Below, piece by piece: positions 1,632 through 61,208 of a stretch of 64,000 nucleotides of DNA. The stretch's first letter is position 1; each line of letters begins with the position of its first letter. The notes beneath the pieces were generated by a model. The model searched no databases, was not told the origin of the DNA, and saw nothing but the letters and a program-made list of their open reading frames with translations. The translations under genes and the position numbers were made by a program. The DNA is from Rhodoferax sp. (lineage in GTDB: Bacteria > Pseudomonadota > Gammaproteobacteria > Burkholderiales > Burkholderiaceae_C). The stretch covers positions 1 to 64,000 of the forward strand of contig NZ_JAGPBB010000006.1 of the NCBI RefSeq assembly GCF_018063565.1. The letters run 5' to 3'.

Positions 1632-1675
1632 ATAGCTATCTACCTATAAAGTAAAAGCGCTTGATGCCATTTTGG
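1632..1675 (+). repeat. Dispersed 40-50 bp repeat, copy 1 (intergenic)
   Basis: The segment starts ATAGC and ends AAGCGCTTGATGCC-ATTTTGG. This fits the family core ATAGC, then about 20-25 nt, then (G/A)GCGCT or GGGCT-AGAGGC, then TTTT, seen elsewhere in the window. It lies about 60 bp before the hrpA start. Confidence 0.5.
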
Positions 1676-1732
1676 CTAAGAAATTAGCACCGTTCAGCCG
1701 CGCGCGGACGCAGCCTCGATAATGGCGACCCC

Positions 1733-4700
1733 ATGTCTGCACCTCTGAAAATCGAATTTCCCGAATCGCTGCCGGTCTCTGCCAAACGGCAAGAGATCAT
1801 GGCGGCAATGGACCAGCACCAGGTCATCATCGTCTGTGGTGAAACCGGTTCGGGCAAAACGACCCAGTTGCCCAAAATCGCCCTCGCGATGGGGCGCGGC
1901 CTGTGCCACTATCCCAGGATCCTGTCCGATGGCCGACCCGCTCCGCGTGGCAAATTGATTGGCCACACGCAGCCACGGCGAATTGCTGCCAGCAGTGTGG
2001 CCAAACGGATTGCCGAAGAACTCCACACCACGCCGGGTGACGTGGTCGGTTTCAAGGTGCGCTTTCAGGACCGGCTGGGCCGCGATGCATCCGTCAAGCT
2101 GATGACCGACGGCATTTTGCTGGCCGAGACACAAACCGATCCGCTGTTGCAAGCCTACGACACCATCATCATCGACGAGGCGCATGAACGCAGCCTGAAC
2201 ATCGACTTTTTGCTTGGCTACCTGCGCCAGATCCTGCCGCGCCGCCCGGACCTCAAAGTGGTGGTGACCTCAGCCACCATTGACGCCCAGCGTTTTGCCG
2301 ACCACTTCGCTTCAAAAAAGGGGCCAGCGCCCATCATCATGGTCTCCGGGCGCATGTTCCCGGTGGAGCAGCGTTACCGCCCGTTTGAAGAAGCGCGCGA
2401 CTACGACCTGAACCACGCGATTGCCGATGCGGTGGACGAGCTTTGGCGTGACATCCATAACAGTGGCGATATTCTGGTTTTCTTACCGGGTGAGCGTGAA
2501 ATCCGCGAGGCCGCCGATCACCTGCGCGGCCATCTGAGTCATCAGCCGGTGTTGCGGGGTACCGAGGTGTTGCCGCTGTTTGCCCGGCTGAGTCAGGCCG
2601 AGCAGGACCGTATTTTTGACGGCCACAGCGGTCGGCGTATTGTGCTGGCCACCAATGTGGCTGAAACCTCACTCACCGTACCCGGTATCCGATACGTCAT
2701 TGACGCAGGCACCGCGCGCATGAAGCGCTACAGTTTCAGAAGCAAGGTGGAGCAACTGCTGGTTGAACCCATCAGCCAGAGCTCGGCCAACCAGCGCGCC
2801 GGGCGTTGTGGCCGGGTGGCCAACGGCATTTGCATCCGGCTGTATGACGAGAAAGACTTTGTCGGTCGCCCCAAGTTCACGGATCCTGAAATCCTGCGCT
2901 CGTCACTGGCCGGGGTGATTTTGCGCATGAAGTCGCTGCGCCTGGGCGTGGTGGAGGACTTCCCGTTTCTTGAAAAACCTTCCGGCCGTGCCATTGCCGA
3001 CGGTTACCAGTTGCTCAATGAACTGGGCGCAGTCGACGATGCCAATGAACTGACTGCGATGGGCGCCGAATTGGCCAGGCTGCCGCTGGACCCCCGCGTG
3101 GGACGCATGATTCTGGAGGCGAGGTCGCGCCAGGCGCTGGATGAGGTGCTGGTGATTGCCTCAGCGCTGAGCGTTCAGGACGTGCGCGACCGCCCGATGG
3201 AAGCGCAACAACAGGCCGATCAGGCGCATGCCAAATTTGATGATGAGAAGAGCGAGTTCAGTGGCTACCTGAAGCTCTGGAAATGGCTCTCTGAGGCCAA
3301 AGGTGGGGAAGGGCAGCACAAACTCAGCAACCGCCAATACGAGCAACTGCTGCGGCAGAATTTTGTCAGCATCCGTCGGGTGCGCGAGTGGCGCGACATT
3401 TACAGCCAGCTGCACACGGTGGTGGCCGAGCACAAGTGGCGCATCAACACCACGCCTGCCAGCTATGAACAGTTGCACCTTGCCATGCTGGCTGGGCTGC
3501 TGGGCAACATCGGTTGCAAACTCGAAACCGAAGGCTCTGGCGGCGAATACCTTGGTGCGCGAAGCATCAAGTTTTATCCGCATCCGGGCGCGCACCTGGT
3601 CAAAAAGCCGGGACGCTGGATTGTGGCCGCGGAGCTGGTGGAAACCACGCGCCTGTTTGGCCGTGGCATCGCCGCCATAGAGCCGCAGTGGCTGGAACAG
3701 GTCGGCGCGCACCTGTTGAAAAAACAGCTGCTGGACCCGCACTGGGAAAAGAAGGTGGCCGAGGTGAACGCGCTGGAGCGCGCCACGCTGTACGGCATCG
3801 TCATCTACAGCGGCCGGCGCGTCAACTACAGCCGGGTGGATCTGGCGGGCGCGCGGGAGATTTTCATCCGTGAGGCGCTGGTAGGCGGCCAGTGGGAGAC
3901 CAAGCTGCCTTTTCTGGCGGCCAATCACAAGCTGATCCAGCAGGTTGAAGACCTGGAACACAAGGCGCGCCGTCAGGATGTGCTGGTGGACGACGAGCTG
4001 ATTTACGCTTTTTACGACCAGCAACTGCCCGCAGACGTCTGTAGCGGTTTCAGTTTTGAGGCCTGGTACCGCGATGCGGCCCGCATCAACCCCAAACTCT
4101 TGTTGTTGACGCGTGAGGAGCTGATGCGCCATGAGGCGGCGGGCATCACCACCCAGTCCTTCCCCAAAACCGTGCGACTGGGCGGGGTGGATTGTGTCGC
4201 CACCTACCTGCACGAGCCGGGTGATCCCAAGGATGGCTTGACAGTGACGGTACCGATTTTTGTATTGAATCAGGTCAATGAAGAGCGTTGTGAGTGGCTG
4301 GTGCCCGGCATGCTGAAGGACAAGATCCAGGCGCTGATCAAGACCCTGCACCAGCGCCCGCGCTCGCGCCTGGTGCCTCTGCCCGAGTCGGCCAGCAAGA
4401 TGGCAGCCCAGCTCAACGAGCCTGCGCTGTTTGGCCATGGCTCATTGATTGAAGCCGTGCTGAAACTGGTGCGCCTGGCCACCGCTGTGGACGTGGTGCG
4501 TGCCGACATCAAGGTGGACATGCTGCAGCCCCATTTCTTCATGAACTTCCGGGTGGTGGATGATCATGGCCGCCAGCTGGGGCATGGTCGCAATCTGGGT
4601 GCATTGAAGGCCGAGCTAGGCGCGCAGGCGCGCGGCGCATTTCAGGCGCTGGCAGGGCTAAAAATGGCAAAAACGACGGCACATCCTTCCAGGGAGCTTA

Positions 4701-5665
4701 AGCAAAACAAGCTGCCAGTCCGTGAAGTACCTGCATCAGCAGCGACAGAAAAGATCATGCGTGACGTGACACCCCAGGTTCGCCCGGCGGGTATCCCACA
4801 CACCAGCTGGACCTTTGGCGAGCTGCCCGAGCTGCTGGAGATACAAAAAGGCGGACAAACGTTGATCGGTTACCCGGCGCTGCTGGACATGGGTGACGCG
4901 GTCACGATCGAGGTATTTGATGAACCAGATGTGGCCGCCGCCAAACATCGTGCCGGCCTGCGCCGCCTGTTTTCGTTGCAGATCAAAGATGCGCTCAAGT
5001 ACCTTGAAAAAAATATTCCCGACCTGCAGAAAATGGCGGTGACCTATATGCAGGTTGGCAAAAACCCGGATGGCAGCGGCACCGGCGGGACGTTGGAAGA
5101 ATTGCGCGAGCAGATCATCAGCGTGGCGCTGGAGCGTGCCTTTTTGCTCGACCCGCTGCCGACCGATGAATTCGCGTTCAAAAAGCGCGTGGACGAGGGG
5201 CGAGGGCGGCTGACGCTCATCTGCACCGAAGTCGCCCGCCTGGCCGCGACGATTCTGAGCGAATACCATGTGGCCGCGCGCAAGATCAAGGACACCAAAA
5301 ATGCCTCTGACGCCACGGCGGATGCTGCCCAGCAGCTATCACGATTGATATCGAAGAAGTTTCTCAGCGTAACCCCGTGGGGCAGTTTGCAGCACCTGGT
5401 GCGCTACCAGAGGGCCATTGCCGCACGGCTCGACAAATACCGAACCGACCCGGCACGCGACAGCGCGCGTTTGAAAGAGCTGCAACCAGTGGAACAGCGC
5501 TACTGGCGTCTGGTGGCTGAGCGCAAAGGCGTGGTCGATGAGAGGTTGCAAGAGTTCCGATGGCTGCTGGAAGAACTGCGCGTGAGCTTCTTCGCCCAGG
5601 AACTGCGCACCCCGCAGCCGGTGAGCATCAAGCGGCTGGACAAGGCATGGTCACAGTTGATGTGA
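1733..5665 (+). CDS. hrpA: ATP-dependent RNA helicase HrpA (DEAH box)
   Basis: This 1310-residue protein has the full DEAH-helicase set: GETGSGKT at 36-43, DEAH at 148-151, SAT at 180-182 and QRAGRCGR near 354. The helicase-associated and OB-like domains follow, then the long C-terminal domain typical of HrpA (about 1300 residues in the family). HrpA acts on RNA and is linked to mRNA processing and rescue of stalled ribosomes. Compared with the E. coli protein as I remember it, there is an insertion of about 15 residues (57-74) between the Walker A helix and the LIGHTQPRR motif. A low-complexity linker lies around residues 975-1010. The ATG at 1733 fits the family N-terminus but lacks a clear ribosome site. 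It is a single gene, not part of an evident operon. Confidence 0.95.
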   Translation: MSAPLKIEFPESLPVSAKRQEIMAAMDQHQVIIVCGETGSGKTTQLPKIALAMGRGLCHYPRILSDGRPAPRGKLIGHTQPRRIAASSVAKRIAEELHTTPGDVVGFKVRFQDRLGRDASVKLMTDGILLAETQTDPLLQAYDTIIIDEAHERSLNIDFLLGYLRQILPRRPDLKVVVTSATIDAQRFADHFASKKGPAPIIMVSGRMFPVEQRYRPFEEARDYDLNHAIADAVDELWRDIHNSGDILVFLPGEREIREAADHLRGHLSHQPVLRGTEVLPLFARLSQAEQDRIFDGHSGRRIVLATNVAETSLTVPGIRYVIDAGTARMKRYSFRSKVEQLLVEPISQSSANQRAGRCGRVANGICIRLYDEKDFVGRPKFTDPEILRSSLAGVILRMKSLRLGVVEDFPFLEKPSGRAIADGYQLLNELGAVDDANELTAMGAELARLPLDPRVGRMILEARSRQALDEVLVIASALSVQDVRDRPMEAQQQADQAHAKFDDEKSEFSGYLKLWKWLSEAKGGEGQHKLSNRQYEQLLRQNFVSIRRVREWRDIYSQLHTVVAEHKWRINTTPASYEQLHLAMLAGLLGNIGCKLETEGSGGEYLGARSIKFYPHPGAHLVKKPGRWIVAAELVETTRLFGRGIAAIEPQWLEQVGAHLLKKQLLDPHWEKKVAEVNALERATLYGIVIYSGRRVNYSRVDLAGAREIFIREALVGGQWETKLPFLAANHKLIQQVEDLEHKARRQDVLVDDELIYAFYDQQLPADVCSGFSFEAWYRDAARINPKLLLLTREELMRHEAAGITTQSFPKTVRLGGVDCVATYLHEPGDPKDGLTVTVPIFVLNQVNEERCEWLVPGMLKDKIQALIKTLHQRPRSRLVPLPESASKMAAQLNEPALFGHGSLIEAVLKLVRLATAVDVVRADIKVDMLQPHFFMNFRVVDDHGRQLGHGRNLGALKAELGAQARGAFQALAGLKMAKTTAHPSRELKQNKLPVREVPASAATEKIMRDVTPQVRPAGIPHTSWTFGELPELLEIQKGGQTLIGYPALLDMGDAVTIEVFDEPDVAAAKHRAGLRRLFSLQIKDALKYLEKNIPDLQKMAVTYMQVGKNPDGSGTGGTLEELREQIISVALERAFLLDPLPTDEFAFKKRVDEGRGRLTLICTEVARLAATILSEYHVAARKIKDTKNASDATADAAQQLSRLISKKFLSVTPWGSLQHLVRYQRAIAARLDKYRTDPARDSARLKELQPVEQRYWRLVAERKGVVDERLQEFRWLLEELRVSFFAQELRTPQPVSIKRLDKAWSQLM

Positions 5666-9941: not shown

Positions 9942-10912
<971 letters not shown>

Positions 10913-12642: not shown

Positions 12643-12660
12643 GTTCAGGGCATTCACCCA

Positions 12661-12694
12661 AGAAAAAAGCCGTTCAACTGAACGGCTTTTTTCT
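12661..12694. terminator. Bidirectional rho-independent terminator (DUF3579 gene / rpsT)
   Basis: A perfectly symmetric hairpin: GCCGTTC / GAACGGC stem with loop AACT, flanked by AGAAAAAA on the left and TTTTTTCT on the right. Each strand therefore reads stem then T-run. It would end the plus-strand DUF3579 transcript and the minus-strand rpsT transcript. Confidence 0.9.
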
Positions 12695-12765
12695 TTGCTG
12701 ACAGCGCACCCGTTACAAACGGCGAAATCCAGATCCCTCAGGATTTCGTGCGGTTTGCCTGAAAA

Positions 12766-13173: not shown

Positions 13174-14733
13174 GTGAGTCTCTTCAAATCTGCCTCCACC
13201 ATCTCTTTGCTGACCCTGTTGTCGCGTATCACCGGGCTGATACGTGACTTGCTGATGGCGTCGACGTTTGGTGTCAGTGTTATGACCGATGCATTCTGGG
13301 TGGCGTTCCGCATTCCCAATATGTTGCGCCGGATGTTTGCCGAGGGTGCCTTCAGCCAGGCCTTTGTGCCAGTGCTGGCCGCCTGCAAAGAGAAGGAAGG
13401 TGACGCCGCCACACACGTCTTGATTGACGCGGTGGCCACGCTGTTGACGGCTGTTTTGCTGTTGGTTGGGTTGGTGGGTGTCGTGGGCGCACCGATTCTG
13501 GTGTACCTGATGGCCAGCGGGTTGCCGCCGCAGGGATTTGAAGCCGCTGTCATCATGACCCGCTGGATGTTCCCCTACATTGTCTGTATGTCGCTGGTGG
13601 CATTGGGGGCGGGGGTGTTGAATACCTGGCGAAGCTATGCCGTGCCGGCGGCCACACCGGTGCTGCTTAACCTGGCCATGATCACGGCCGCTTGGCTGGG
13701 TGCCCCCTGGTTTGCTCGCCTAGGTATTGAGCCGATCTATGCCATGGCCGGTGGGGTAATGTTGGGTGGCATCCTCCAGTTGGGGGCCGTCGCCTGGGCG
13801 CTCAAGCGCCTGGGTCTGTTGCCACGGGTGCGTCTTGGCCTGGGGCCGGCCCGCGCCGCGTGGTCGCTCGAGCCGACAAAGAGGATAGCAAGTTTGATGT
13901 TGCCGGCGCTTCTGGGTGTCAGCGTTTCGCAAATTTCCTTGTTGATCAATACCCAGATTGCTTCACATTTGGCCATCGGATCGGTCAGCTGGCTCAACAG
14001 CGCCAGTCTGCTGATGGAATTTCCCACCGCGATGATCGGGGTGGCTTTGGGTGTTGTGCTGATGCCGCAGCTGGCGGCGGCCAAGGCGGCCAACGATAGC
14101 GTCCGGTTTTCCAACATGATCGATTGGGGGCTGCGGCTGGTGGTATTGCTGGCCGTGCCAGCCTCTGTGGCCTTGTTGACCTTTGCCTTGCCGCTGGTGT
14201 CGGTACTTTTTCACAATGGCGCCATCACGGCGCGAGATGTGACGCAGACCACTGCGGCGCTGGTGGGGTACGGGGTTGGACTGCTGGGCTTGGTCGCGAT
14301 CAAGGTGTTGGCACCGGGTTACTTTGCCAGCCAGGACATCAAAACCCCCGCACTGATTGGAATTGCCGTGTTGCTGGCCACGCAGGGACTCAACCTTGTG
14401 TTTGTGCCACTTTTGTCACATGCCGGGTTGGCCTTGGCCATTGGCGTGGGTGCACTCATCAATGCTCTTTGGTTATTGTTTGGCTTGATGCGCCGGCGTA
14501 CGTTTGTCCCAGCGCCTGGCTGGGGCGTCTTTTTGCTGCAGGTACTGGCGGCCTCCGCCTTGATGGCGCTGTTCCTGATGTGGGCCAATGGCCACTTTGC
14601 CTGGATCGAGTTGCGGGCCGAGCGTTTCAAGAGAGTTTGGCTTCTGGCGCTTATTTTGATTGGATCTGTTGCTATATATTTTGTTTCAATCTGGGCGGCC
14701 GGCCTGAAACTGCACCAACTTGTTCGGCGTTAG
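13174..14733 (+). CDS. murJ: Lipid II flippase MurJ (MviN family)
   Basis: The 519-residue polytopic membrane protein of the MOP superfamily moves lipid II across the inner membrane for peptidoglycan synthesis. The family start is seen in SLFKSASTISLLTLLSRITGLIRD, with the charged FRIPNMLRRMFAEGAFSQAFVPV segment around residues 45-70. About 14 hydrophobic helices follow. The start is GTG at 13174. Near the 3' end (14639-14675) an AT-rich stretch resembling the window's dispersed repeat encodes part of the last helix region. The stop at 14733 is five bases before the next gene. Confidence 0.96.
   Translation: MSLFKSASTISLLTLLSRITGLIRDLLMASTFGVSVMTDAFWVAFRIPNMLRRMFAEGAFSQAFVPVLAACKEKEGDAATHVLIDAVATLLTAVLLLVGLVGVVGAPILVYLMASGLPPQGFEAAVIMTRWMFPYIVCMSLVALGAGVLNTWRSYAVPAATPVLLNLAMITAAWLGAPWFARLGIEPIYAMAGGVMLGGILQLGAVAWALKRLGLLPRVRLGLGPARAAWSLEPTKRIASLMLPALLGVSVSQISLLINTQIASHLAIGSVSWLNSASLLMEFPTAMIGVALGVVLMPQLAAAKAANDSVRFSNMIDWGLRLVVLLAVPASVALLTFALPLVSVLFHNGAITARDVTQTTAALVGYGVGLLGLVAIKVLAPGYFASQDIKTPALIGIAVLLATQGLNLVFVPLLSHAGLALAIGVGALINALWLLFGLMRRRTFVPAPGWGVFLLQVLAASALMALFLMWANGHFAWIELRAERFKRVWLLALILIGSVAIYFVSIWAAGLKLHQLVRR
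14639..14675 (-). repeat. Dispersed repeat, degenerate copy 3 (in frame inside murJ)
   Basis: On the minus strand it reads ATAGC at 14675-14671, about 20 bases, then AAGCGCCAGAAGCC, matching the family layout with several changes. It stays in frame in the last transmembrane region of MurJ. This is a weaker case than the argF or carB-leader copies. Confidence 0.35.
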
Positions 14734-19468: not shown

Positions 19469-19509
19469 GCTATATAGTAGTGAGCAACCATCCATTTTAA
19501 AGCAAGGGG
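19469..19509 (+). repeat. Possible degenerate repeat copy 4 (ldc-fabI gap)
   Basis: GCTATATAGTAGTGAGCAACC followed by AAGCAAGGGG and TTGAGGC loosely follows the layout of the dispersed repeat. This copy is poorly preserved and could be chance AT-rich sequence. Confidence 0.3.
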
Positions 19510-28822: not shown

Positions 28823-30030
28823 CCGATAACATCGAATCACACCGGAAGCGCGTTGCCATTTTGGGTTCCACCGGATCGATCGGTGTCAGTACCCTGGCGG
28901 TTATCGCTGCGCATCCCGAGCGTTTTGAGGTGTTTGCGCTAAGCGCTGCCACGCAAGTCGACAAGATGCTGGCGCAATGCGCCCAGTTTAAGCCCGTGTT
29001 TGCAGTGATGGCCGATGTGCAGGCAGCGGGCCAATTGACGGAAAAAATCAAGCAAAATGGGCTTTCCACCCAAGTTTTATCTGGATTAAGTGCTATTGAC
29101 TTGATATCAAGTCATGCCTTGGTGGACATCGTGATGGCGGCCATTGTTGGTGCCGCTGGCCTGGCCTCCTGTTTGGCGGCGGCCCGCAGTGGCAAGCGAT
29201 TGCTGCTGGCCAACAAAGAAGCGTTGGTGGTTGGCGGTGATTTTTTTCTTAAGGCGGTCAGTGCCGGAGGTGCCAAACTACTGCCTATTGACAGTGAGCA
29301 TTCTGCGGTGTTTCAGTCTTTGCCGGCCGACCCTCTGCTGTGGCCGGCACAAATCGACAAGATCATCTTGACGGCTTCAGGGGGCCCGTTCCGGCGAACC
29401 GATCCGGCATTGTTTGCCAGCCTCACGCCAGAGCAGGCCTGTGCACACCCCAACTGGAGCATGGGCCGGAAGATTTCTGTCGACTCGGCCACCATGATGA
29501 ACAAGGCGCTGGAGGTGATCGAGGCGCGTTATTTGTTTGGTGTCCAACCGGAGCAGATCGAGGTGGTGATCCATCCCCAGAGTGTGATCCATTCCATGGT
29601 GCAGTACCGGGACCATTCGGTGGTGGCGCAACTGGGCACTCCTGACATGAAAGTCCCCATTGCCTACGGCCTGTCGTGGCCTGATCGCATTGTTTCGGGT
29701 GCCGATGCACTGGATTTTTCGGTCATGAAGGACCTGAGCTTTGAGTCTTTGGACGCACACGGTCATCCCCAGCGTTTTCCCGGCCTGAAACTGGCCTGGG
29801 AGGTTTTGCGGGCGCCGGCCGGGTCGCCGGCAGTGCTGAATGCGGCCAATGAAGTCGCGGTGGCGGCCTTTTTGGCCGGGGTCATCCGTTTCGACCAGAT
29901 TCATACCGTCAATCATGAGACGTTGTCCGGTGTTGCTGTCTCCATGCCGGATTCACTCGAGGACCTGTTGGCCTTGGATGCGCTGGCCAGGCGCACTGCG
30001 CAACGCGTGCTGGCACGCATTGCCACCTGA
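28819..30030 (+). CDS. dxr: 1-deoxy-D-xylulose-5-phosphate reductoisomerase
   Basis: The 403-residue enzyme commits DXP to the MEP isoprenoid pathway. The NADPH site is LGSTGSIGVS (residues about 15-24). ANKEALVVGG, the acidic metal-binding PIDSEHSAVFQ, and TASGGPFRR and NWSMGRKISVDSATMMNKALE-type substrate segments follow. It starts within the cdsA stop (ATGA). The stretch 29053-29096 is AT-rich and resembles the dispersed repeat, but it does not lengthen the protein noticeably. Confidence 0.97.
   Translation: MTDNIESHRKRVAILGSTGSIGVSTLAVIAAHPERFEVFALSAATQVDKMLAQCAQFKPVFAVMADVQAAGQLTEKIKQNGLSTQVLSGLSAIDLISSHALVDIVMAAIVGAAGLASCLAAARSGKRLLLANKEALVVGGDFFLKAVSAGGAKLLPIDSEHSAVFQSLPADPLLWPAQIDKIILTASGGPFRRTDPALFASLTPEQACAHPNWSMGRKISVDSATMMNKALEVIEARYLFGVQPEQIEVVIHPQSVIHSMVQYRDHSVVAQLGTPDMKVPIAYGLSWPDRIVSGADALDFSVMKDLSFESLDAHGHPQRFPGLKLAWEVLRAPAGSPAVLNAANEVAVAAFLAGVIRFDQIHTVNHETLSGVAVSMPDSLEDLLALDALARRTAQRVLARIAT
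29053..29096 (-). repeat. Dispersed repeat, copy 5 (in frame inside dxr)
   Basis: On the minus strand it reads ATAGCACTTAATCC, then AAACTTGGGTGGAAAGCCC-ATTTTG, parallel to GGGCTAGAGGC-TTTT in other copies. It encodes the KQNGLSTQVLSGLSAI part of Dxr. A moderate match. Confidence 0.4.
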
Positions 30031-36566: not shown

Positions 36567-37715
36567 GTGTCTGCCGCGCTGAACACCGCCCTGGTTGCCG
36601 GTGAAACCTCGGGCGACCTGCTGGCGGGCTTGCTGCTCGACGGCATGCGCCAGCGCTGGCCTGATCTGCATAGCTTTGGCATCGGCGGACCGCAGATGGC
36701 CCGGCGCGGCTTCGAGGCCTGGTGGCCGCACGACAAACTGGCCGTGCACGGCTTCGGCTGGGAGGTGCTGCGCCGCTACCGGGAGATCCTGGGCATTCGC
36801 AATCAGCTCAAACAGCGCCTGCTGGCTAACCCGCCTGGCATTTTTATTGGTGTCGATGCACCCGATTTCAACCTTGACCTTGAAGCCGCGCTGCGCCAGC
36901 AGGGCATCAAGACCGTGCACTTTGTCTGCCCCTCGGTCTGGGCCTGGCGCGCGGAGCGGCTGGAGAAAATCAAGCGCAGCGTCGATCATGTGCTGTGCAT
37001 CTTCCCTTTTGAGCCGGCGCTGCTGGCGCAGCATGGCATTGCCGCCACCTATGTCGGCCATCCACTGGCCAACGTGATCCCCATGGTGTCCGACCGTGTT
37101 TTGGCGCGCACGCAGCTCGGGCTAAGCGCCGACGCGCCGGTGCTGGCGATTTTGCCGGGCAGCCGCGAGTCCGAGGTGCGCCATCTCGCGAACACGTTTT
37201 TTCAGGCTGCAGCGCTGATCCGACAAGCACTTCCAGCTATTCAATGCATAGTTCCTGCGGTGCCCTTGTTGCGTGATCGCATCGTGGCCGCGGCAGCAGC
37301 CTGTGGACTGCAAGACCGGGTGCGGGTGGTGGTGGGTCAGTCACACGCGGTGCTGGCGGCGTGTGATGTCACGCTGATTGCCAGTGGCACCGCCACGCTG
37401 GAAGCCGCCTTGTTCAAACGGCCTATGGTGATCGCCTACCGCATGGGCAGCCTGTCGTGGCAGATCATGCGCCGTAAACGGCTGCAGCCCTGGGTGGGGC
37501 TGCCCAATATTCTGAGTGGCGAATTTGTCGTGCCGGAACTGCTGCAGGACGCGGCTACACCGCGGGCGCTGGCACATGAGGTGCTGGCCTGGCTGATCGC
37601 GCCTGCTGCGAAAATAACGCAACTTGAACAACGTTTTACCGCGCTGCACCATCAATTGCAACGCAACACTCCGCAACTTGCCGCTCATGCCATCGCCCAA
37701 GTCATCCAGCCTTAA
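36567..37715 (+). CDS. lpxB: Lipid-A-disaccharide synthase
   Basis: The 382-residue GT-B glycosyltransferase joins UDP-diacylglucosamine and lipid X. Family motifs are [12 protein letters not shown] at the start, [61 protein letters not shown] and [21 protein letters not shown]. The start is GTG at 36567. It follows lpxA by 23 bases and overlaps rnhB by 29 bases. Confidence 0.96.
37203..37240 (-). repeat. Possible degenerate repeat copy 6 (inside lpxB)
   Basis: On the minus strand it reads ATAGCTGGAAGTGCTTG, then ATCAGCGCTGCAGCC, similar in layout to the dispersed repeat. The encoded protein segment aligns normally with LpxB, so this may be coincidence. Confidence 0.25.
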
Positions 37716-38367
37716 ACGCAAGAAACCCCGCGCCCTGCGTCAACCCAATATGCGACAGCTGGCGCTGACCTGGGGCACGAACGGTCTGATCGCCGGTGTG
37801 GACGAGGCTGGACGCGGTCCGCTGGCTGGGCCGGTGGTGGCAGCAGCGGTGATTCTGGACGATTTGAAACCCATTGCCGGGCTGGCTGACTCAAAAATGC
37901 TGACGGAGAAAAAGCGCGAGCGCCTGTTTGACGAGATCCGCGCCCGTGCCCTGTGTTTTTCCGTGGCGCAAGCCAGTGTGGATGAAATTGACAAGCTCAA
38001 TATCCTGCAAGCCACGCTGATGGCCATGCGCCGCGCTGTGGAGGGTCTTCGCCTGGCACCCAAACTGGTGCTGGTCGATGGCAATCGACTGCCGAGCTTG
38101 CCGATGCGCGGCGAGGCGGTGGTCAAGGGTGATGCCCTGGTGGCGGCGATCTCGGCCGCATCCATCCTGGCCAAAGTCACACGCGACCGCCTGTGCCTGG
38201 AGCTTGACCAGCAATACCCTGCCTATGGTTTTGCCCGGCACAAGGGCTATGGGACGGCACAGCATCTGGCGGCACTGAAGGAGCAGGGTGCTTGCCCGCA
38301 ACACCGCAGGAGCTTTCGGCCAGTGAGCGAAGCGCTGGCGTCGGCCACAGCCATGGCGACAGCATGA
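37687..38367 (+). CDS. rnhB: Ribonuclease HII
   Basis: The 226-residue enzyme nicks RNA in RNA-DNA duplexes and removes misinserted ribonucleotides. It has [19 protein letters not shown] with the paired Asp-Glu, the [16 protein letters not shown] segment, LVDGNRLP, and [21 protein letters not shown] with the further aspartates. ATG 37687 overlaps lpxB by 29 bases. ATG 37750, which would remove 21 basic residues, is an alternative. The stop overlaps the methyltransferase start (ATGA). Confidence 0.95.
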
Positions 38368-39167
38368 ACGCGCCGACCCACATCAGCTCGCGCGACAACG
38401 CCTGGCTCAAAGAACTGCGCCGTCTGGCCACCGGCAACACCGATTACCGCAAGCAGGGCCGTTTCTGGGCCGAGGGCGACCACTTGCTGCGCGCGGCACT
38501 GGCGCGTGGGGTGACGCCTCAATTTGGCGTATTTTCAGAGTCATTCTGGCCACTAGCGCAAAGCCAGTATCAGAAAGCTGCTACAAAAAATGTGGTGATT
38601 TCTGACAGCGAGTACGCCGGGCTGAGTGCGCTGGAGTCACCCTCCCGTATGGGTTTTGTGTTTGATCTGCCCGCCACACCGCCGCTGCAGCCGCACGCTG
38701 CCAGTGTCATTCTGGACCGGGTGCAGGACGCCGGCAATGTTGGCGCCATCCTGCGCAGTGCCTCGGCCTTTGGTTTCAGGCAGATCATTGCGCTCAAGGG
38801 GACGGCAGCCTTGTGGAGCCCCAAGGTGCTGCGCGCCGGTATGGGGGCGCATTGGGGTCTGCAGTTGATCGAAGGCACAGATCTGGCGCTGCTGGGGTCA
38901 ATGCAACTGCCACTGCTGGTCACCAGCTCGCATCAAGGACGTTTTTTGCACGATTTGCTTCAAGCAAGAGAGCTTCCAGCGCAATGTTCATGGGCGCTTG
39001 GACATGAAGGGCAGGGTGTAAGTGACGCCTTGCAGACGCTGGCCAGTCAGTGGGTGCGCATCGCCCAGCCGGGTGGCGAAGAATCATTGAATGTGGCCAG
39101 TGCGGCGGCGATTTGCCTGCACGCCAGCGCCAGTGCAGGACTGTTGGGGCTTGCGGGTAAACCCTGA
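38364..39167 (+). CDS. SpoU/TrmH-family RNA 2'-O-methyltransferase
   Basis: The 267-residue protein has an N-terminal substrate-binding domain ([29 protein letters not shown]) and a SPOUT domain. The three trefoil-knot motifs are [33 protein letters not shown] and [21 protein letters not shown]. It is most like RlmB/TsnR-type rRNA methyltransferases, but the exact nucleotide is not known. It starts in the rnhB stop. Residues about 60-76 ([17 protein letters not shown]) are encoded by a copy of the dispersed repeat, in frame between the two domains. Confidence 0.9.
38546..38590 (-). repeat. Dispersed repeat, copy 7 (in frame inside rRNA methyltransferase gene)
   Basis: On the minus strand GTAGCAGCTTTCTG is followed after a short spacer by TTGCGCTAGTGGCC-AGAAT, close to AGCTGCTTGCGC and GCGCTAGAGGCC of other copies. 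It lies in the linker between the two protein domains. Confidence 0.6.
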
Positions 39168-39336: not shown

Positions 39337-40524
39337 GTGCTTTTGTCCCTTCAGGGAAACACCCCACCCGCCATCCTGGCGCTCGCAGACGGCACGGTCT
39401 ATATCGGCAATTCCATCGGGGCAGCAGGCTCCACGGTCGGTGAAGTGGTGTTCAACACCTCCATGACCGGTTACCAGGAAATCCTCACCGACCCCAGTTA
39501 TTGCCAGCAGATCGTCACGCTGACTTACCCGCACATTGGCAATACCGGCACCAATGCACAGGACGTGGAGGCTGACAAGGTTCACGCCGCCGGCTTGATC
39601 ATCAAGGATCTGCCGCTGCTGGCCTCCAATTTCCGCTCAACCCAGAGCCTGAGTGACTACCTGGTGACCGAAGGCACGGTGGCCATTGCCAATATCGACA
39701 CACGCCAATTGACGCGCCAGTTGCGCAGCGGTGGCGCACAAAACGGCTGCATTCTGGCGCTGGCAGCCGGTGCGGCAGTGACGTCCCAAGCCATTGCCAA
39801 AGCCCAGGCGCTGGCCAAGACTGCCCCAGCAATGGCAGGTACGGATCTGGCCAAGGTGGTGTCCAGCCCCGAGCGATACACCTGGACCGAGACCGAGTGG
39901 GCCTTGTTCAACCCGGCATTGAATGGTCAGCCCGGCTATGGTGAGCAAGCCAATGCACGGTTTCATGTCGTGGCGTACGACTTTGGCGTGAAGAAAAATA
40001 TCTTGCGCATGTTGGCGCAGCGTGGCTGCCGCGTCACCGTAGTTCCGGCGCAAACTTCCGCGCCAGCGGCAAAGCAACTCCAGCCCGATGGCATCTTTTT
40101 GAGCAACGGCCCGGGTGACCCAGAGCCGTGTGACTACGCCATTGCCGCTGCCGCGGAGTTGATCGACGCCGGCATCCCCACCTTTGGCATCTGCCTGGGG
40201 CATCAGATCATGGCGTTGGCCAGTGGTGCCAAAACCTTCAAGATGAAGTTTGGCCACCATGGCGCCAACCATCCGGTCAAAGACCTGGACAGCGGCCGTG
40301 TGTCCATCACCAGCCAGAACCATGGTTTTGCGGTGGACGAAAAAACCTTGCCCGCCAATCTGCGCCCCACCCATGTCAGCCTGTTTGATGGCACCTTGCA
40401 GGGTCTGGAGCGCACCGACCAACCGGCATTCTGTTTTCAAGGCCACCCCGAGGCGTCACCCGGCCCGCACGATATTGGCTACCTGTTTGACCGCTTCATT
40501 GCTTCGATGGAGGCGCGTGCGTGA
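39337..40524 (+). CDS. carA: Carbamoyl-phosphate synthase small subunit
   Basis: The 395-residue glutaminase subunit supplies ammonia to CarB for carbamoyl phosphate, used in arginine and pyrimidine synthesis. The N-terminal domain starts [19 protein letters not shown] and has [25 protein letters not shown]. The class-I amidotransferase domain has the nucleophile in FGICLGHQ and the His-Glu in [13 protein letters not shown] choose GTG 39337, which has GGAG seven bases upstream; an in-frame ATG at 39304 would add 11 residues. The stop overlaps the exporter gene (GTGA). Confidence 0.95.
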
Positions 40525-41198
40525 GCTTTTATGGCGTGACTGACCTGTGGACCTACGTGGTGGGTGCCTTTGGCATCATCCTGCTGCCCGGTCCCAATTC
40601 GTTGTACGTGCTGAGTGTGGCCACTGCACGCGGCGTGCGTGCCGGGTTTCAGGGGGCTTATGGCGTTTTTGTCGGCGACACGGTGTTGCTGCTATGTACT
40701 GCCCTGGGCGCGGCCAGCCTGTTGCGCACGCATCCGGCGCTGTTCATGGTGGTGAAGTATGTTGGTGCGGCCTATCTGTTCTGGATCGGGCTGAATTTGC
40801 TGTCGGGCGCGCTCAAGGGGCTGCGCCGCCCGGCTGATGCACCGGTAGTGGTCAGCGCTGAGGCCGCTTCCCCGGTGGCCACAGCAGCCCATCTACAGCG
40901 GCCGTTTCGTCGCGCGCTGGTCATCAGCCTGCTCAACCCCAAGGCGATTTTGTTTTTGCTGTCGTTTTTTGTGCAGTTTATTGATCCGGCCTACGCCCAG
41001 CCCGAGGTGCCGTTTCTGATTTTGAGCGTCATTTTGATGGGCTTCAGCGCGGCCTACCTCACGGTGCTGATTTTTGCAGGCGCCCGATTGGCACAAACCT
41101 TCAGCCAGCGCAAACGACTGTCGGGTGGCCTGTCGAGCCTGGTGGGTGGCCTGTTTGTGTGGTTTGGCAGCAAACTGGCCACGGCCAGCCTCAGTTGA
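40521..41198 (+). CDS. LysE/RhtB-family amino-acid exporter (LeuE-like)
   Basis: The 225-residue membrane protein has six hydrophobic segments and the LysE-family hallmarks [26 protein letters not shown] near the N-terminus, [11 protein letters not shown], and [18 protein letters not shown] in the middle. Overall it most resembles the leucine exporter LeuE. It is inserted between carA and carB and overlaps the carA stop by four bases, so it is read with the car genes. Why an exporter sits there is unclear. Confidence 0.9.
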
Positions 41199-41209
41199 TT
41201 AGTTATAAA

Positions 41210-41256
41210 TAAAGGAGCTGCTTGCGCTTATAAAGATTGGGCTAGAGGCAGTTTTA
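41210..41256 (+). repeat. Dispersed repeat, copy 8 (best preserved; fills carB leader)
   Basis: GGAGCTGCTTGCGCTTATA, then GATTGGGCTAGAGGC, then AGTTTT. This is the clearest copy in the window and the one I used as reference. It starts about 10 bp after the leuE-like stop and ends 11 bp before the carB start codon. Confidence 0.7.
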
Positions 41257-41266
41257 ATACAAAATT

Positions 41267-44566
<3,300 letters not shown>

Positions 44567-45195: not shown

Positions 45196-45633
45196 TTGAG
45201 GCAGGTGCTGGCTCGCGGCTCGGTCTGGATTGCTGCGCTGTGGTGGGGCAGTCTGAGCACGGTTGGTTTCTATGTGGTGCCCATGCTGTTTGCGCACCTG
45301 CCGTCACCCGCATTGGCCGGGAACATGGCGGCCAAGCTGTTTGCAGCGCAAACCTGGGTGGCGGTGGTGTGCGGCCTCTTGCTGCTGCTGAATGACAGGG
45401 AAAATCAACCTCTAGCCCAATCAGGACGTACACATAGCGCTACTGTTTTTATTATCCTCGGGATGCTGCTTGCGTTGCTGTCAGAGTTTGCGGTGGCACC
45501 GCGCATCATCGCCCGCGACAACCTGCGCCTGTGGCACAGCGTGGGCACCGGTTTATATGTGCTGCAGTGGGTTTGCGCCGGTGTGGTATTTGCGCGTTTG
45601 CAGCGGCAAAACGGCGCAGTGGCTCAATCCTGA
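45196..45633 (+). CDS. DUF4149 domain membrane protein
   Basis: The 145-residue protein has four hydrophobic segments and the DUF4149 look: SVWIAALWWGSLSTVGFYVVPMLFAHLPSPALAGNMAAKLF, ending FAVAPRIIARDNLRLWHSVGTGLYVLQ. The function is unknown. It follows greA by 15 bases. A TTG at 45196 or a GTG at 45205 are the possible starts, neither with a strong site. Residues about 69-86 (ENQPLAQSGRTHSATVFI) come from a repeat copy in frame, between two helices. The 3' end overlaps yhbY by ten bases. Confidence 0.8.
   Translation: MRQVLARGSVWIAALWWGSLSTVGFYVVPMLFAHLPSPALAGNMAAKLFAAQTWVAVVCGLLLLLNDRENQPLAQSGRTHSATVFIILGMLLALLSEFAVAPRIIARDNLRLWHSVGTGLYVLQWVCAGVVFARLQRQNGAVAQS
45401..45455 (-). repeat. 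Dispersed repeat, copy 9 (in frame inside DUF4149 gene)
   Basis: On the minus strand it reads GTAGCGCTATGTG, then CCTGATTGGGCTAGAGG, then TTGATTTT, carrying the exact GGGCTAGAGG core. It codes for the loop between helices 2 and 3 of the protein. Confidence 0.65.
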
Positions 45634-48851: not shown

Positions 48852-48871
48852 CCGTTTTAACCACATTGAAG

Positions 48872-48892
48872 CGGGGCTGCGGCCCCGTTTTT
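48872..48892 (+). terminator. Rho-independent terminator after ftsH
   Basis: CGGGGC-TGCG-GCCCCG followed by five T residues, 20 bases after the ftsH stop. The T-run ends only three bases before the folP start codon. Confidence 0.85.
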
Positions 48893-48895
48893 CGT

Positions 48896-49756
48896 ATGTA
48901 CTGGCAAACCACCCGATTTCGCGTTGACCTGAGCACCCCGAAAGTGATGGGGATTGTGAATGTCACGCCCGACTCATTTTCCGACGGTGGTGCGCACTAC
49001 TCTGCTGCTGCGTCGCTGCGGCATTGTGAGCAGCTGGTTCTGGAGGGTGCCGATTTACTGGACATCGGCGGTGAGTCGACCCGTCCTGGTGCCACACCGC
49101 TTGCGCTGGAGGACGAACTGGCACGGGTGCTGCCGGTGGTGCGTGAGGCAGTGCGTCTGGGAGTACCGGTGTCGGTTGATACCTACAAACCGCAGGTCAT
49201 GCAGGCGGTGCTCGATCTGGGTGCTGACATCATCAACGATGTTTGGGCTTTGCGTTGGTCTCCTGATTCTGCGGCGCCGAGCGCAGCACAGGCCATTGCG
49301 GGTCATCCCAACTGTGGCGTCTGTCTGATGCATATGCATCTGGAGCCACAAACCATGCAGGTCTCACCGATGCACGGGGATGTGGTGCCACAAGTACTCT
49401 GTTTTCTAGAGCGTTCAGCAAATACAGTTATTGGGCTAGGGATCGATAAGACCCGAATTTTGTTGGACCCCGGCATTGGTTTTGGAAAGACCGTGGCGCA
49501 GAACTTCGCCTTGTTGTCGCGGCAACGTGAACTGCTGGCTGCCGGCTACCCGCTGTTGCTCGGGTGGTCGCGCAAGTCATCCTTGGCGGGTATGACCGTG
49601 AGCGGCGCTGCGGCTACGGGTCTTGATGTCCATCAACGCTTGGTGCCAAGTCTTGCGGCAGCCTTGCTGGCAGTGCAGCGCGGAGCCTCGGTAGTGCGGG
49701 TACACGATGTGAAAGAAACCGTTCAGATGCTTCGGGTGCTGGAGGCGGCCCGATAA
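48896..49756 (+). CDS. folP: Dihydropteroate synthase
   Basis: The 286-residue TIM-barrel enzyme joins pterin and p-aminobenzoate in folate synthesis. It has [18 protein letters not shown] at residues about 15-32, [48 protein letters not shown] and [12 protein letters not shown]. The ATG at 48896 is set by the family start, but it has no ribosome site: the ftsH terminator ends three bases before it. A repeat-like AT-rich stretch (49407-49447) encodes the [13 protein letters not shown] part. Confidence 0.94.
49407..49447 (+). repeat. Dispersed repeat, copy 10 (in frame inside folP)
   Basis: TAGAGCGTTCAGCAAATACAG, then TTATTGGGCTAGGGATC keeps the GGGCTAG core and the spacing of the family. It encodes a short segment before [12 protein letters not shown]. 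Confidence 0.45.
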
Positions 49757-57572: not shown

Positions 57573-57627
57573 GTGACCCAAGGCAAAAGGTCGCTGGGCA
57601 CCTTTGACCCTGCGCCCGGCCAGGTGC

Positions 57628-58359
57628 TTAATTTGCGCCTGCGCTGGCCGTTTTGGCTCCTGTCGCGGCCCTGCCATCGGCGCGCTGGCGTGCATCGTTG
57701 TCAAGGGTGCGCTGCTTGCTTTGCATCACATGGTCCACCATGGCACGCCCTGCAGCCTCGACATCGCCCGAGGCAATGGCTTTGACTATCAGCTTGTGTT
57801 CGGCTAGAAAGGTCTTCATCAGCACCGTGTCGGTCAGGTTTTGCCGGCGAAAGAGCGACAACTCCTTGATCAGCTTGCGGTAGGTGTCGGTGAGCTTGCG
57901 GTTGCCAGTGATCTCGACCATGCGGTCGTGAAACTTCAGGTTCAACACATGGTATTGATGGGCATCCTGCGCCCTGACGGCGATCTCCATGTCGGCCACC
58001 AGCGTTTTGATTTCCTGAAGTTGCGCTGGCATGATGCTGGCCGCCAGGCGTTTTCCGACCCATTCGTCCATGGCGGCACGCAGGTCAAAAATTTCCAGCG
58101 CCTCGTCAATCGGAATGTCGCGCACGAAAACGCCACGGTTCTTTTCGGTGCGCACCAGCCCGGCTTCGTCGAGCATCAGAAATGCTTCACGAATCGGCCC
58201 ACGCGACACACCAAGCTTTTCAGCCAGAGCCGCTTCATTAAGTTTGGCACCGGGCAGATACTCGCCTGACAAAATGGCGCGCTCAATTTCCTGTTGCACA
58301 ACGACCGACAGTGAACTGTTCTGCAGCAGGGCGATGGTGGGGTGGATCGAAGCTGTCAT
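57628..58359 (-). CDS. GntR family regulator (FadR/FCD type)
   Basis: The 243-residue regulator has an N-terminal winged helix (VVQQEIERAILSGEYLPGAKLNEAALAEKLGVSRGPIREAFLMLDEAGLV) and an FCD ligand domain from about residue 85 (ALEIFDLRAAMDEWVGKRLA, FHDRMVEITGNRKL, EHKLIVKAIASGDVEAAGRAMVDHV). It is the last gene of the phosphonate operon and most likely controls the locus in response to a phosphonate intermediate. Candidate operators precede phnX and the divergent promoter. ATG 58359, 26 bases after phnW. Confidence 0.9.
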   Translation of the reverse strand: MTASIHPTIALLQNSSLSVVVQQEIERAILSGEYLPGAKLNEAALAEKLGVSRGPIREAFLMLDEAGLVRTEKNRGVFVRDIPIDEALEIFDLRAAMDEWVGKRLAASIMPAQLQEIKTLVADMEIAVRAQDAHQYHVLNLKFHDRMVEITGNRKLTDTYRKLIKELSLFRRQNLTDTVLMKTFLAEHKLIVKAIASGDVEAAGRAMVDHVMQSKQRTLDNDARQRADGRAATGAKTASAGAN

Positions 58360-58385
58360 GGTCAGATTTGATCACAAGCCGGGCT

Positions 58386-59489
58386 TCAGCTGGCAATACC
58401 CAGATCCTGCAACGCCAGCGCCACGGCGTGCACCGCCTGTTCCATGTCATGCGGACCGATGGCGCCAATGCAGCCGACCCGGAAGGTCTCGATCTGGGTC
58501 AGTTTGCCGGGGTAGAGCAAAAAGCCATGAGCACGCACCGCCGCATAAAACGACTTGAATTCGTAGTGGTGGTGGGTTGGCGCATGAAAAGTGACGATGA
58601 TCGGTGACTGGAAGGTCGGGTCAAGAAACGGCTTGAAACCCAGGCGCGCCATGCCAGCCATCAGCGCCTCAAAATTGCGCGTATAACGCGCCAGCCGCGC
58701 CGGCTGCCCACCCTCGGCTTCAAATTGTGCAATCGCCTCGTGCAAGGCCACCACCACATGCGTGGGCGGGGTAAAGCGCCACTGCCCGGTCTTTTCCATG
58801 TAAACGTATTGGTCGTGCAGGTCCATGGCGAGTGATTGGCTCTGGCCGGCACAGCTGTCGAGCACCGCCTTGCGGATAAACACAAAGCCCATGCCTGGCA
58901 CCCCCTCCAGGCATTTGCCGCTGGCGGCTATCAGCGCGTCAAAGCGGGTTTTGCGCGCGTCAATTTCCAGCGCACCAAAGGAACTCATCGCATCGACGAT
59001 CAGGCCCTTGCCGTGCACGGCGCAAACATCGGCCACCGCTTGTAAGGGGTTCAGCACGCCGGCTCCGGTTTCGCAGTGGATCAGCACCACATGGGTGATC
59101 GAAGCGTCGGCCTTCAGGTGCTCCGCCAACACCGCGGCCGACACCGGCTGCGCCTCGTCAAAGTCGAGAACGGTGACGCGGCGCCCCATGAGCTGCGTCA
59201 GGCGCGCGGCGCGTTTGCAGTAGGCACCGTTGTCGAGCACCAGCACATGGCCATCCCGCGGCACCAGCGTGGCGACCGCGGCTTCAACGCTGAAGGTGCC
59301 ACTCCCCTGCAGCGGCACCACCACATGGCTGTCGCTGCCGTGAATGATCTTGAGCAGGCTGGCGCGCACGCTGGCCGTGACGGCGTTGAAATCGGCGTCC
59401 CACGAACCCCAGTCTTTCAACATCGCCAGCTTGGTGCGCAGCGTGGTGGTCAGGGGGCCGGGGGTCAGCAGGATCTTGTCTCTGTCCAT
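58386..59489 (-). CDS. phnW: 2-aminoethylphosphonate--pyruvate transaminase
   Basis: The 367-residue fold-type-I PLP enzyme transfers the amino group of 2-aminoethylphosphonate to pyruvate, giving phosphonoacetaldehyde and alanine. It has the family start [27 protein letters not shown], the phosphate-contact [34 protein letters not shown], the PLP lysine in [17 protein letters not shown], and the end [15 protein letters not shown] 59489 has GGAG nine bases upstream. It lies 18 bases after the permease gene. Confidence 0.94.
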
Positions 59490-59507
59490 GGTTTTGGTCT
59501 CCAATTG

Positions 59508-61208
59508 TCAAACTCGCCAGGCCTGGGTGCGCCGATGCACCCACCAGGCCAGCATCATGAAAAACAGCGTCGCCAGCGTGCTGGCGACACCAATCAAAAC
59601 GGCCATGGCTGCCGCTGCGCCCATTTCGCCCGCCTCATCGAGGTTCAGGATGGCGATGGACGCGACCTTGGTTTCCGGCGAGTACAGGAATACCACGGCA
59701 GAGATGGTGGTCATGGCATTGATAAAAAAGTAGCGCGCCATGTCCACCAGCGCCGGCGTGCACACCGGCAGCGTCACGCGCCAGAAAGTCTTGTAAAACG
59801 GTACCTTTAGCGAGGCGCTCACCGCTTCAAACTCGCTGTCCAGTGCCTTCAATGCCGTCACGGCGGTCAGATGACCGGTGGTGTAGAAGTGCACGATGGT
59901 GCACAGCGTCAGCAATGTTAGCGTGTGGTAGAGGCCATTCAAAGGGTTGGTTGTGGCATTGAAGAAAAAGATATAACCCAGGCCCAGCACCAGTCCCGGT
60001 ACTGCCATCGGTACCACCGCTAGCAGACGCACCAGACCACGCAGACCATCCATGCCCTTGGTTTTTTCCAGCAGATAGGCGCCTACAAATACCAGCGCCG
60101 TGCCAAACAGCGCGGTGCCACCGGCCATCTTGATGCTGTTGAAAAAAGCCACACCGACTTCGGCATCGAGCAGCCCCAGGGTGTAATGGCGCAGGCTCGG
60201 CGTCAGGTTATACGGCCAGAAGGTGGCAAACGAGGCAAACACTGCCATGCCCAGCATGGCGAGCACCAGCAGCGCCATGCTGGCGCAAAACAGCGTCATC
60301 AGCCGGTCAAACACGGGCGATGGTTTGGCACGGTAAGGAATGGCGCGTGCCGTGAGCATGGCAGTCTGGCGCCGGCTGACATAGTTGTCGACACCAAAAC
60401 TCAACACGGCCGGCGTCAGCAGCAGAATGGCCACCACTGCGCCCTTGGCAAAGTCCTGCTGGCCGATCACCAGCTTGAATACGTCAGTGGCGAGGACGTT
60501 GAAGTTGCCGCCAATCACCTTGGGAATGCCAAAGTCGGTGATCACCAGGGTGAAGGTCACCATGGCAGCAGAGATCAGCCCGTATTTGGCCCCTGGCAAG
60601 GTAATAGTGAAAAACTTGCGCATGGCAGTGGTGCCCATGGCGTCGGCGGCCTCGAACAGACGCGCATCTGACATCGACAAGGCTGTCACCAGAATCATCA
60701 GCGTGTGCGGAAACACCGCAATACACTCGGCCAGCACCACGCCGGGGGCACCGTAAATCTCATCAATGCCGATGCTTTGCAACCAGGCCTTGAGCACGCC
60801 CTGGTTGCCAAACCAGTAAATCAGCGAAATCGCTGACAGCAGTGAGGGTGCCAGCAGCGGCACCAGCGTGATGCCTCGAAACAGTGCCTTGTAGGGCATG
60901 CAAGAGCGGGTCAACGCGTAGGCAAAGGTAAACGCCAGCGGCAACACAATCAGCGTCACCAGCCCCGACACCCACAGACTGTTCCACAGGCTGCCCAGCA
61001 GCGCCGGGGTTTTGGCGTAAGCGACAAAATTGGCCAGCCAGACAAATTCTCCACTGTCAGACTGCAAGGCCTGAATCAGGATGGCGCCCAGTGGTAGCGC
61101 CAAAAAATACAACAAAATAATAGCTACCAGAGCAAGCAGGACATGCGCTAGACGGTCAATCCAGTGGTGATCCTGCTTGACCGGCGGCCTCTGCAGCACT
61201 GCGGCCAT
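59508..61208 (-). CDS. phnU: 2-aminoethylphosphonate ABC transporter permease (fused)
   Basis: The 566-residue protein contains two binding-protein-dependent permease modules in one chain, each with about six helices. The first EAA-like loop is EAADAMGTTAMRKFFTITLPGAKYGL (about 200-225) and the second is EAVSASLKVPFYKTFWRVTLP. This fused layout is the type called PhnU2 in 2-aminoethylphosphonate transporters. ATG 61208 overlaps the ATPase stop by one base (TGATG). The DNA for the first helix (61119-61160) matches the dispersed repeat. Gene symbol by cluster context. Confidence 0.88.
   Translation of the reverse strand: MAAVLQRPPVKQDHHWIDRLAHVLLALVAIILLYFLALPLGAILIQALQSDSGEFVWLANFVAYAKTPALLGSLWNSLWVSGLVTLIVLPLAFTFAYALTRSCMPYKALFRGITLVPLLAPSLLSAISLIYWFGNQGVLKAWLQSIGIDEIYGAPGVVLAECIAVFPHTLMILVTALSMSDARLFEAADAMGTTAMRKFFTITLPGAKYGLISAAMVTFTLVITDFGIPKVIGGNFNVLATDVFKLVIGQQDFAKGAVVAILLLTPAVLSFGVDNYVSRRQTAMLTARAIPYRAKPSPVFDRLMTLFCASMALLVLAMLGMAVFASFATFWPYNLTPSLRHYTLGLLDAEVGVAFFNSIKMAGGTALFGTALVFVGAYLLEKTKGMDGLRGLVRLLAVVPMAVPGLVLGLGYIFFFNATTNPLNGLYHTLTLLTLCTIVHFYTTGHLTAVTALKALDSEFEAVSASLKVPFYKTFWRVTLPVCTPALVDMARYFFINAMTTISAVVFLYSPETKVASIAILNLDEAGEMGAAAAMAVLIGVASTLATLFFMMLAWWVHRRTQAWRV
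61119..61160 (+). repeat. Dispersed repeat, copy 11 (in frame inside permease gene)
   Basis: AATAATAGCTACCAGAGC, then ATGCGCTAGACGG-TCAAT, parallel to ATAGC and GCGCTAGAGGC of other copies. On the minus strand it codes for the entry of the first transmembrane helix (DRLAHVLLALVAIILL). Confidence 0.55.

What the first reader, a model, noticed from the sequence alone, without database searches (positions are those of the whole stretch)
1632..61160. A short degenerate repeat in about ten places, often in frame inside essential genes
Reading the AT-rich patches together shows a shared layout: ATAGC, about 20-25 nt (often TGCTTGCGCTT...), GGGCTAGAGGC or GCGCTAGAGGCC, then TTTT. Best copies: 41210-41256, 45401-45455, 10257-10298, 38546-38590, 61119-61160, 1632-1675. 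Weaker: 49407-49447, 29053-29096, 14639-14675, 37203-37240, 19469-19509. Both orientations occur, and the coding copies keep the frame. I recall similar elements in other Comamonadaceae genomes but know of no mechanism. The pattern suggests a mobile or gene-converted miniature element tolerated in protein linkers.
Basis: partly seen in the sequence, partly recalled or inferred. Interest (0 to 1): 0.75.

Follow-up and report, generated by a model that had tools for sequence, protein, structure and literature searches.

The report
Genome-wide 70-base signal inside genes
Many Comamonadaceae-type bacteria carry over a hundred copies of a roughly 70-base DNA pattern between and inside genes, and at several sites it was written into conserved genes by base changes rather than inserted, so it looks like an undescribed DNA signal that the cell keeps rather than a jumping element.

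Summary
The repeat is real and far more numerous than reported. A 75-column profile gives 149 matches at E<0.006 in the 4.13 Mb genome (only 150 candidates scored) and seven in the window at E<0.03, six of them below 0.001. Of 60 genomes of the genus 34 have strong copies; one relative has about one per 9 kb. Of 184 genomes across the class only this one matches at E<=1e-6. The unit is about 70 nt, AT-rich, with sharp ends.

A mobile insertion does not explain the copies in lpxB, rlmB and DUF4149: element-free relatives have homologous residues, nearly always without a gap. Carriers spell the motif with AT-ending codons. The lpxB site recurs in 19 of 20 carriers of 14 other genera and in 0 of 10 element-free genomes. 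Close relatives share 41 of 44 mapped copies. The copy before carB changed at 1 of 68 bases while 32% of four-fold carB sites changed. Genomes without the element form two separate groups.

Best reading: a maintained chromosomal DNA signal, reader unknown, with uptake-sequence-like behaviour. Two copies lie in extra protein linkers.

The parts
1616..1685 (+). element copy, between genes, upstream of ORF 1733-5665+
   Evidence: R1 20.3 bits, not in the profile; whole-genome E 0.0013
10240..10306 (+). element copy inside argF (ornithine carbamoyltransferase, ORF 9942-11081-), antisense
   Evidence: R1 47.7 bits, copy used in the profile; gene identity from PDB 4f2g, E 1e-143; orthologues
37211..37253 (-). 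element copy (model columns 7-49) inside lpxB (ORF 36567-37715+), antisense
   Evidence: R1 18.0 bits, not in the profile; gene identity and gapless alignment with LpxB 5w8s; site kept in other genera
38533..38601 (-). element copy inside an rRNA methyltransferase-like ORF (38292-39167+; called rlmB here from recall), antisense
   Evidence: R1 30.0 bits, copy used in the profile; orthologues
41198..41267 (+). element copy filling the gap between ORF 40521-41198+ and carB (41267-44566+; gene name recalled)
   Evidence: R1 43.3 bits, copy used in the profile as L008; 1 of 68 bases differs from G021
45390..45454 (-). element copy inside a small membrane-protein ORF (45196-45633+; DUF4149 from recall), antisense
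   Evidence: R1 15.8 bits, copy used in the profile; orthologous copy in G032 48.4 bits
61113..61152 (+). marginal element copy inside ORF 59508-61352-, antisense
   Evidence: R1 10.3 bits, E 0.028
14625..14655 (-). marginal copy inside ORF 13174-14733+, antisense
   Evidence: R1 7.7 bits, E 0.17
49394..49450 (+). possible remnant inside ORF 48866-49756+
   Evidence: 8.5 bits, E 0.16 with the first profile; no R1 match at E<=10; orthologous place in G021 13.1 bits

Best explanation
It is a chromosome-wide DNA signal, about 70 bp long, that is maintained, not a mobile insertion now at work. Shown: at least 149 matches in the own genome; stable positions between close species; sites written into conserved genes by base substitution at lpxB, rlmB and DUF4149; constraint on the copy before carB; absence or near absence from two groups nested among carriers.
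For: Substitution at lpxB, rlmB and DUF4149. Using every carrier that has the gene, whether or not it has the motif there, third-position AT inside the site is 0.61, 0.67, 0.68 and 0.51 against 0.29, 0.30, 0.28 and 0.24 outside (lpxB, rlmB, DUF4149, argF); in element-free genomes 0.22, 0.28, 0.22 and 0.23 against 0.25, 0.20, 0.19 and 0.19. Synonymous identity of the site ranks 8 of 352, 3 of 236 and 1 of 123 windows for the first three genes. lpxB site in 19 of 20 and rlmB site in 17 of 20 carriers of 14 other genera, 0 of 10 element-free for both. Copy before carB, own against G021: 1 of 68 bases changed against 172 of 543 four-fold carB sites. Shared intergenic copies in close pairs: high-information columns 21/270 changed, low-information 23/142 (Fisher p 0.011; each pair counted in both directions). 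Two element-poor groups nested among carriers. Between-gene preference: 24 of 46 places, with 84% of the sequence called coding. Top 150 G009 copies: strands 70/80, random gaps. One strong copy as BLAST query met 3 of 72,556 plasmid and 0 of 50,697 phage records (BLAST is insensitive to degenerate copies). Clade-specific centres. ComEC domain in 34 of 36 carriers.
Against: No reader protein is identified. ComEC is as common in non-carriers (23 of 25), and carriers G022 and G046 show none, so it does not support uptake. About 70 bp is far longer than the 29-bp Haemophilus consensus, and copies are about 9 kb apart in G009, not about 1 kb. Two copies sit in extra linkers. argF shows no raised synonymous identity when all carriers are used (229 of 299). 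In own/G021 coding copies the high-information columns changed as much as the others (38/120 against 20/69). In the nine genomes with the copy before carB, high-information columns changed least (249/898), but mid (349/795) exceeded low (189/524).
Confidence: 0.42

Rival explanations
1. An old REPIN-like palindromic mobile element. A RAYT-like single-strand transposase once spread it; copies now persist by descent, with gene conversion among copies, and coding copies were trimmed to fit the protein.
For: The unit is an imperfect palindrome with AT-rich ends. A Y1_Tnp (PF01797) match occurs in 28 of 29 genomes, mostly one protein of roughly 240 aa; an element lies at its 3' end in 7 of 12 carriers examined and also at its 5' end in G043 and G055. 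Extra linkers in two G009 proteins. Within-genome variants look concerted.
Against: The same gene is present in element-free genomes. Base rate of an element within 80 bp 3' of a gene is already 19 of 313, and the 7 are orthologues, not independent. 41 of 44 mapped copies are shared in close pairs and none shows a ~70-nt gap. The lpxB site leaves no room for an insertion.
Confidence: 0.27
2. An intracellular signpost: a nucleoid or chromosome-organising protein binds the sites, as MatP binds matS or Noc its sites (recalled), so position on the chromosome matters.
For: Deep conservation of position, few plasmid and no phage matches, loss in whole lineages.
Against: The top 150 copies in G009 are near uniform (KS p 0.057) with random gaps and mixed strands, so no clear terminus or origin bias. 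No factor found.
Confidence: 0.2
3. An RNA element acting in transcripts (terminator, antisense or processing signal).
For: Copies in 6 of 31 convergent, 11 of 123 tandem and 1 of 38 divergent gaps. Left stem 68.8% paired (no control for that stem alone).
Against: RNAalifold finds only 3 pairs, none with two-sided change. The centre pair 31-45 covaries (134 GC, 11 CG) but 38 copies are GG. Coding copies occur in both orientations (14 antisense, 8 sense). No Rfam match reaches a gathering score in 10 loci (one weak match away from the element).
Confidence: 0.05

Closest known systems
USS/DUS uptake sequences (Pasteurellaceae, Neisseriaceae)
   Same: Arise in genes by substitution with few gaps, prefer non-coding DNA, show no strand bias, have AT-rich flanks (Haemophilus) and clade dialects; genetically stable (passages and section 7 of PMC1626085; passages of PMC1939737).
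   Different: About 70 bp instead of a 9-10 bp core or 29-bp consensus; about 9 kb apart in the densest genome counted instead of about 1 kb; no uptake data; two copies in extra linkers.
REPIN/REP elements with RAYT transposase
   Same: Palindromic, many copies, sometimes beside a Y1_Tnp gene (passages of PMC3116915).
   Different: Many copies inside genes, some written by substitution; the Y1_Tnp gene does not track the element.
BRE, Beta-proteobacterial repeat element (PMC3110155)
   Same: Dispersed repeat listed in Bordetella, Polaromonas, Rhodoferax, Acidovorax and others; some copies inside genes (section 14 read).
   Different: BRE in Bordetella averages 69% GC, is about 90 bp and may be in tandem; the window copies here are 31-47% GC (matches at E<0.03). 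Sequences not compared: the BRE alignment is a figure that is not held.
Rickettsia palindromic elements (RPE)
   Same: Palindromic elements found in frame inside proteins (recalled; only search listings seen).
   Different: RPEs are described as insertions (recalled); lpxB, rlmB and DUF4149 copies here are not.

Membership tests
Mobile miniature element (MITE/RPE type) | clean insertion relative to empty orthologous sites | tested here: not met
   lpxB, rlmB, DUF4149 nearly always without a gap; argF 3-residue clade difference; no ~70-nt gap in 44 mapped copies. Two G009 proteins do have extra linkers.
Mobile miniature element (MITE/RPE type) | target-site duplication | not tested
   no empty/occupied pair with a clean gap was found to read it from
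REPIN with RAYT | dependence on a RAYT gene | tested here: inconclusive
   PF01797 in 28 of 29 genomes, carriers and non-carriers alike; element at the 3' end in 7 of 12 carriers
REPIN with RAYT | conserved hairpin | tested here: inconclusive
   left stem 68.8% paired; centre partly covarying, 38 copies mismatched; RNAalifold 3 pairs only
USS/DUS uptake sequence | arises by substitution inside genes | tested here: met
   lpxB, rlmB, DUF4149; exceptions
USS/DUS uptake sequence | preferential uptake of DNA carrying the motif | not testable with these tools
   needs a competence assay
USS/DUS uptake sequence | competence machinery | tested here: inconclusive
   ComEC domain in 34 of 36 carriers and 23 of 25 others; other competence genes not tested
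BRE | GC-rich (about 69% in Bordetella), ~90 bp | tested here: not met
   window copies 31-47% GC, about 70 nt
BRE | sequence identity with the BRE alignment | not tested
   alignment figure not held

The most novel reading that the evidence does not exclude
A family-wide, codon-embedded chromosomal signal of about 70 bp, longer than any uptake or signpost motif I know of, kept at the same places inside conserved genes such as lpxB across many genera by selection or biased recombination, read by a factor that has been lost at least twice.
Probability: 0.45. Interest if true: 0.88.

Novelty: new variant of a known kind. Interest (0 to 1): 0.75.

Why it matters
A signal that biases the codons of conserved genes across a bacterial family would mean an unknown DNA-reading system in these bacteria, and natural carrier/non-carrier pairs make it testable. 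It also warns that apparent in-frame repeats in genes can be substitutions, not insertions.

Tried and rejected
Rejected: chance (reversed controls). Recent transposition. RAYT presence as what decides element presence; RAYT is kept only as a rival. ComEC as a discriminating gene. A fixed RNA fold. In one search my columns for helices 2 and 3 were out of register, so only helix 1 is used, and that call's whole-structure controls say nothing for it. One search's strongest column couplings (62/65, 57/61, 67/70) are near neighbours at the right end and look like register variation, not pairing. mis-called the ORF in G002, G055 and own; G055 is read. Searches used only carriers picked for a copy at the gene and left out some that have one (G031 and G036 for rlmB; G009, G046, G055 and G031 for DUF4149; G044 and G009 for argF); one search repeats the test with every carrier, and there argF's synonymous identity is not raised. 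My earlier thought that the element replaces the spacer before carB is dropped: spacers are 57-70 nt with the copy and 19, 25, 55, 83, 88 and 143 nt without. uvrC of G009 was uninformative: no solved structure covers the element.

Literature: no paper describing this motif was seen in the listings; each lists only the best few (15 of 511, 15 of 87, 15 of 37, 12 of 25, 12 of 144, 2 of 2), and the library holds open-licence PubMed Central papers only. PMC2755013: passages only (its 'palindromic' is about CRISPR). PMC3733652: listing only.
Full report
What was checked. The layout is one real family. A pattern drawn from the copies gives 10 matches in the own genome and none when read backwards. 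A scan of the 84,980-species collection for the strict centre gave 57 stretches; their titles name Acidovorax, Rhodoferax, Comamonas, Giesbergeria and Simplicispira, or MAGs labelled only Comamonadaceae, Burkholderiaceae or (OSS_A.mb.6) Gammaproteobacteria. Column counts over 59 copies show a unit of about 70 nt, roughly [68 protein letters not shown], with information near zero outside it. These 59 share an exact centre by construction.

Copy number. Profile R1 (64 copies, 75 columns, no structure) gives 150 matches at E<=1 in the own genome, 149 below 0.006; two of these overlap on opposite strands of one place, and only 150 candidates were scored, so the number is a lower bound. Only four of the window's seven copies are in that list. 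In 400 kb of one complete relative, G009, there are 49 hits at E<0.01, in 46 places, and none at E<=10 in the reversed sequence. With my own gene caller 22 are inside genes (14 antisense, 8 sense) and 24 outside, although 84% of the sequence is called coding. In the wider family 58 of 250 genomes, 35 of 126 genera, have a match at E<=1e-9; of 184 genomes across the class only the own genome has one at E<=1e-6.

Insertion or not. I compared the region around carB in 20 relatives (the stretches of G002 and G024 do not reach lpxB). At E<=0.5, read by position, copies lie in lpxB of 9 of 11 carriers that show the gene, in rlmB of 11 of 11, in DUF4149 of 12 of 13 and before carB in 9 of 15; six genomes (G002, G020, G027, G029, G038, G053) have none in the stretch. 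Inside the genes the element-free genomes carry homologous residues without a gap, except DUF4149 of G038; among carriers G055 has six extra residues in rlmB and G031 a gap in DUF4149 (G003's lpxB row is a wrong match and was set aside). The solved LpxB 5w8s (E. coli, recalled) aligns without a gap across the site. argF: the own clade is 3 residues longer than the sister clade, G002 and G020 share the longer form without the motif, and the OTCase 4f2g lacks 3 residues there. FolC of G009 aligns with 1w78 (E. coli, recalled) with a 5-residue gap at the element's edge. Against this, a GluQ-like and a CobU-like protein of G009 have about 51 and 31 extra residues around their copies. So both modes exist.

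Constraint. With every carrier that has the gene, AT-ending codons make up 0.51-0.68 of the site against 0.24-0.30 of the rest; in element-free genomes 0.22-0.28 against 0.19-0.25. Synonymous identity of the site ranks 8 of 352 (lpxB), 3 of 236 (rlmB) and 1 of 123 (DUF4149) windows in carriers, but 229 of 299 for argF, whose copy many carriers lack; in element-free genomes the ranks are 280, 168, 5 and 272, so DUF4149 is conserved there too. The copy before carB changed at 1 of 68 bases between own and G021 while 172 of 543 four-fold carB sites changed. In shared ungapped intergenic copies of close pairs, high-information columns changed less than low-information ones (21/270 against 23/142). 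Across the nine genomes with the copy before carB the figures are 249/898 high, 349/795 mid and 189/524 low. In own/G021 coding copies the difference is absent (38/120 against 20/69), which counts against constraint there.

Stability and history. In four close pairs, counted in both directions, 41 of 44 mapped copies have a counterpart; 14 of 58 hits could not be mapped, and counterparts were accepted down to weak scores (E<=5). Spans agree within one base except at two sites, each seen from both sides, that differ by 18 and 45 nt; none shows a ~70-nt gap. A carB tree of 21 genomes puts the six genomes with 0-1 strong copies (G020 has one) in two groups among 15 carriers; two changes are needed, 2-3 in bootstraps. 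To test depth I gave 20 of the 56 other-genus carriers, those with many strong copies, and 10 element-free genomes (nine other genera and G005). The lpxB site is present in 19 of 20 (18 at 13-29 bits, G124 at 9; G230 lacks it), the rlmB site in 17 of 20 (12-41 bits), and neither in any of the 10.

Variants. Genome consensuses differ: GCGCTT...AAGCGC in OSS_A.mb.6 and G009, GCCCTT...AAGGGC in G003 and G054 and, less clearly, G023, and AAGCGC, AAGGGC and TTGGGC mixed in own (5 to 62 copies for the genomes named; G021 and G022 gave too few). This could be co-evolution with a dimeric reader, or conversion.

Mechanism. The gap test is the one used for Haemophilus USS. Random spacing, mixed strands, preference for non-coding DNA, few plasmid and no phage matches, dialects and loss in lineages fit an uptake-type drive or an intracellular signpost. 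ComEC is nearly universal and decides nothing. A REPIN-like origin remains open: a conserved Y1_Tnp gene has an element at its 3' end in 7 of 12 carriers, but that gene is also in element-free genomes and the base rate is 19 of 313 genes. The reader protein is not known. Gene names other than argF, lpxB, folC and the GluQ-like and CobU-like proteins are recalled, not from calls.

Noticed in passing
L216 and L218 (G043, G055), about 1345-1409 and 2161-2222: A conserved Y1_Tnp (RAYT-like) gene has an element on both sides; in G022, G032, G009, G031 and G054 only on the 3' side.
   Followed up: partly
just before carB in L100, L109, L110, L112 (G002, G009, G046, G055): These genomes, without the element there, share a GAGAGCAGT stretch (a possible ribosome site) that the copies before carB lack; G020 and G045 lack both.
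   Followed up: no
L043:6704-6780 and L047:1364-1440 (OSS_A.mb.6): Two copies are nearly symmetrical palindromes and match the strict centre on both strands.
   Followed up: no
L159:11908-13048 (G009): Two element places, each matching on both strands, lie about 1.1 kb apart around a stretch with possible uncalled ORFs.
   Followed up: partly
window 12654-12701: Strong inverted repeat with A and T runs, probably an ordinary bidirectional terminator.
   Followed up: no
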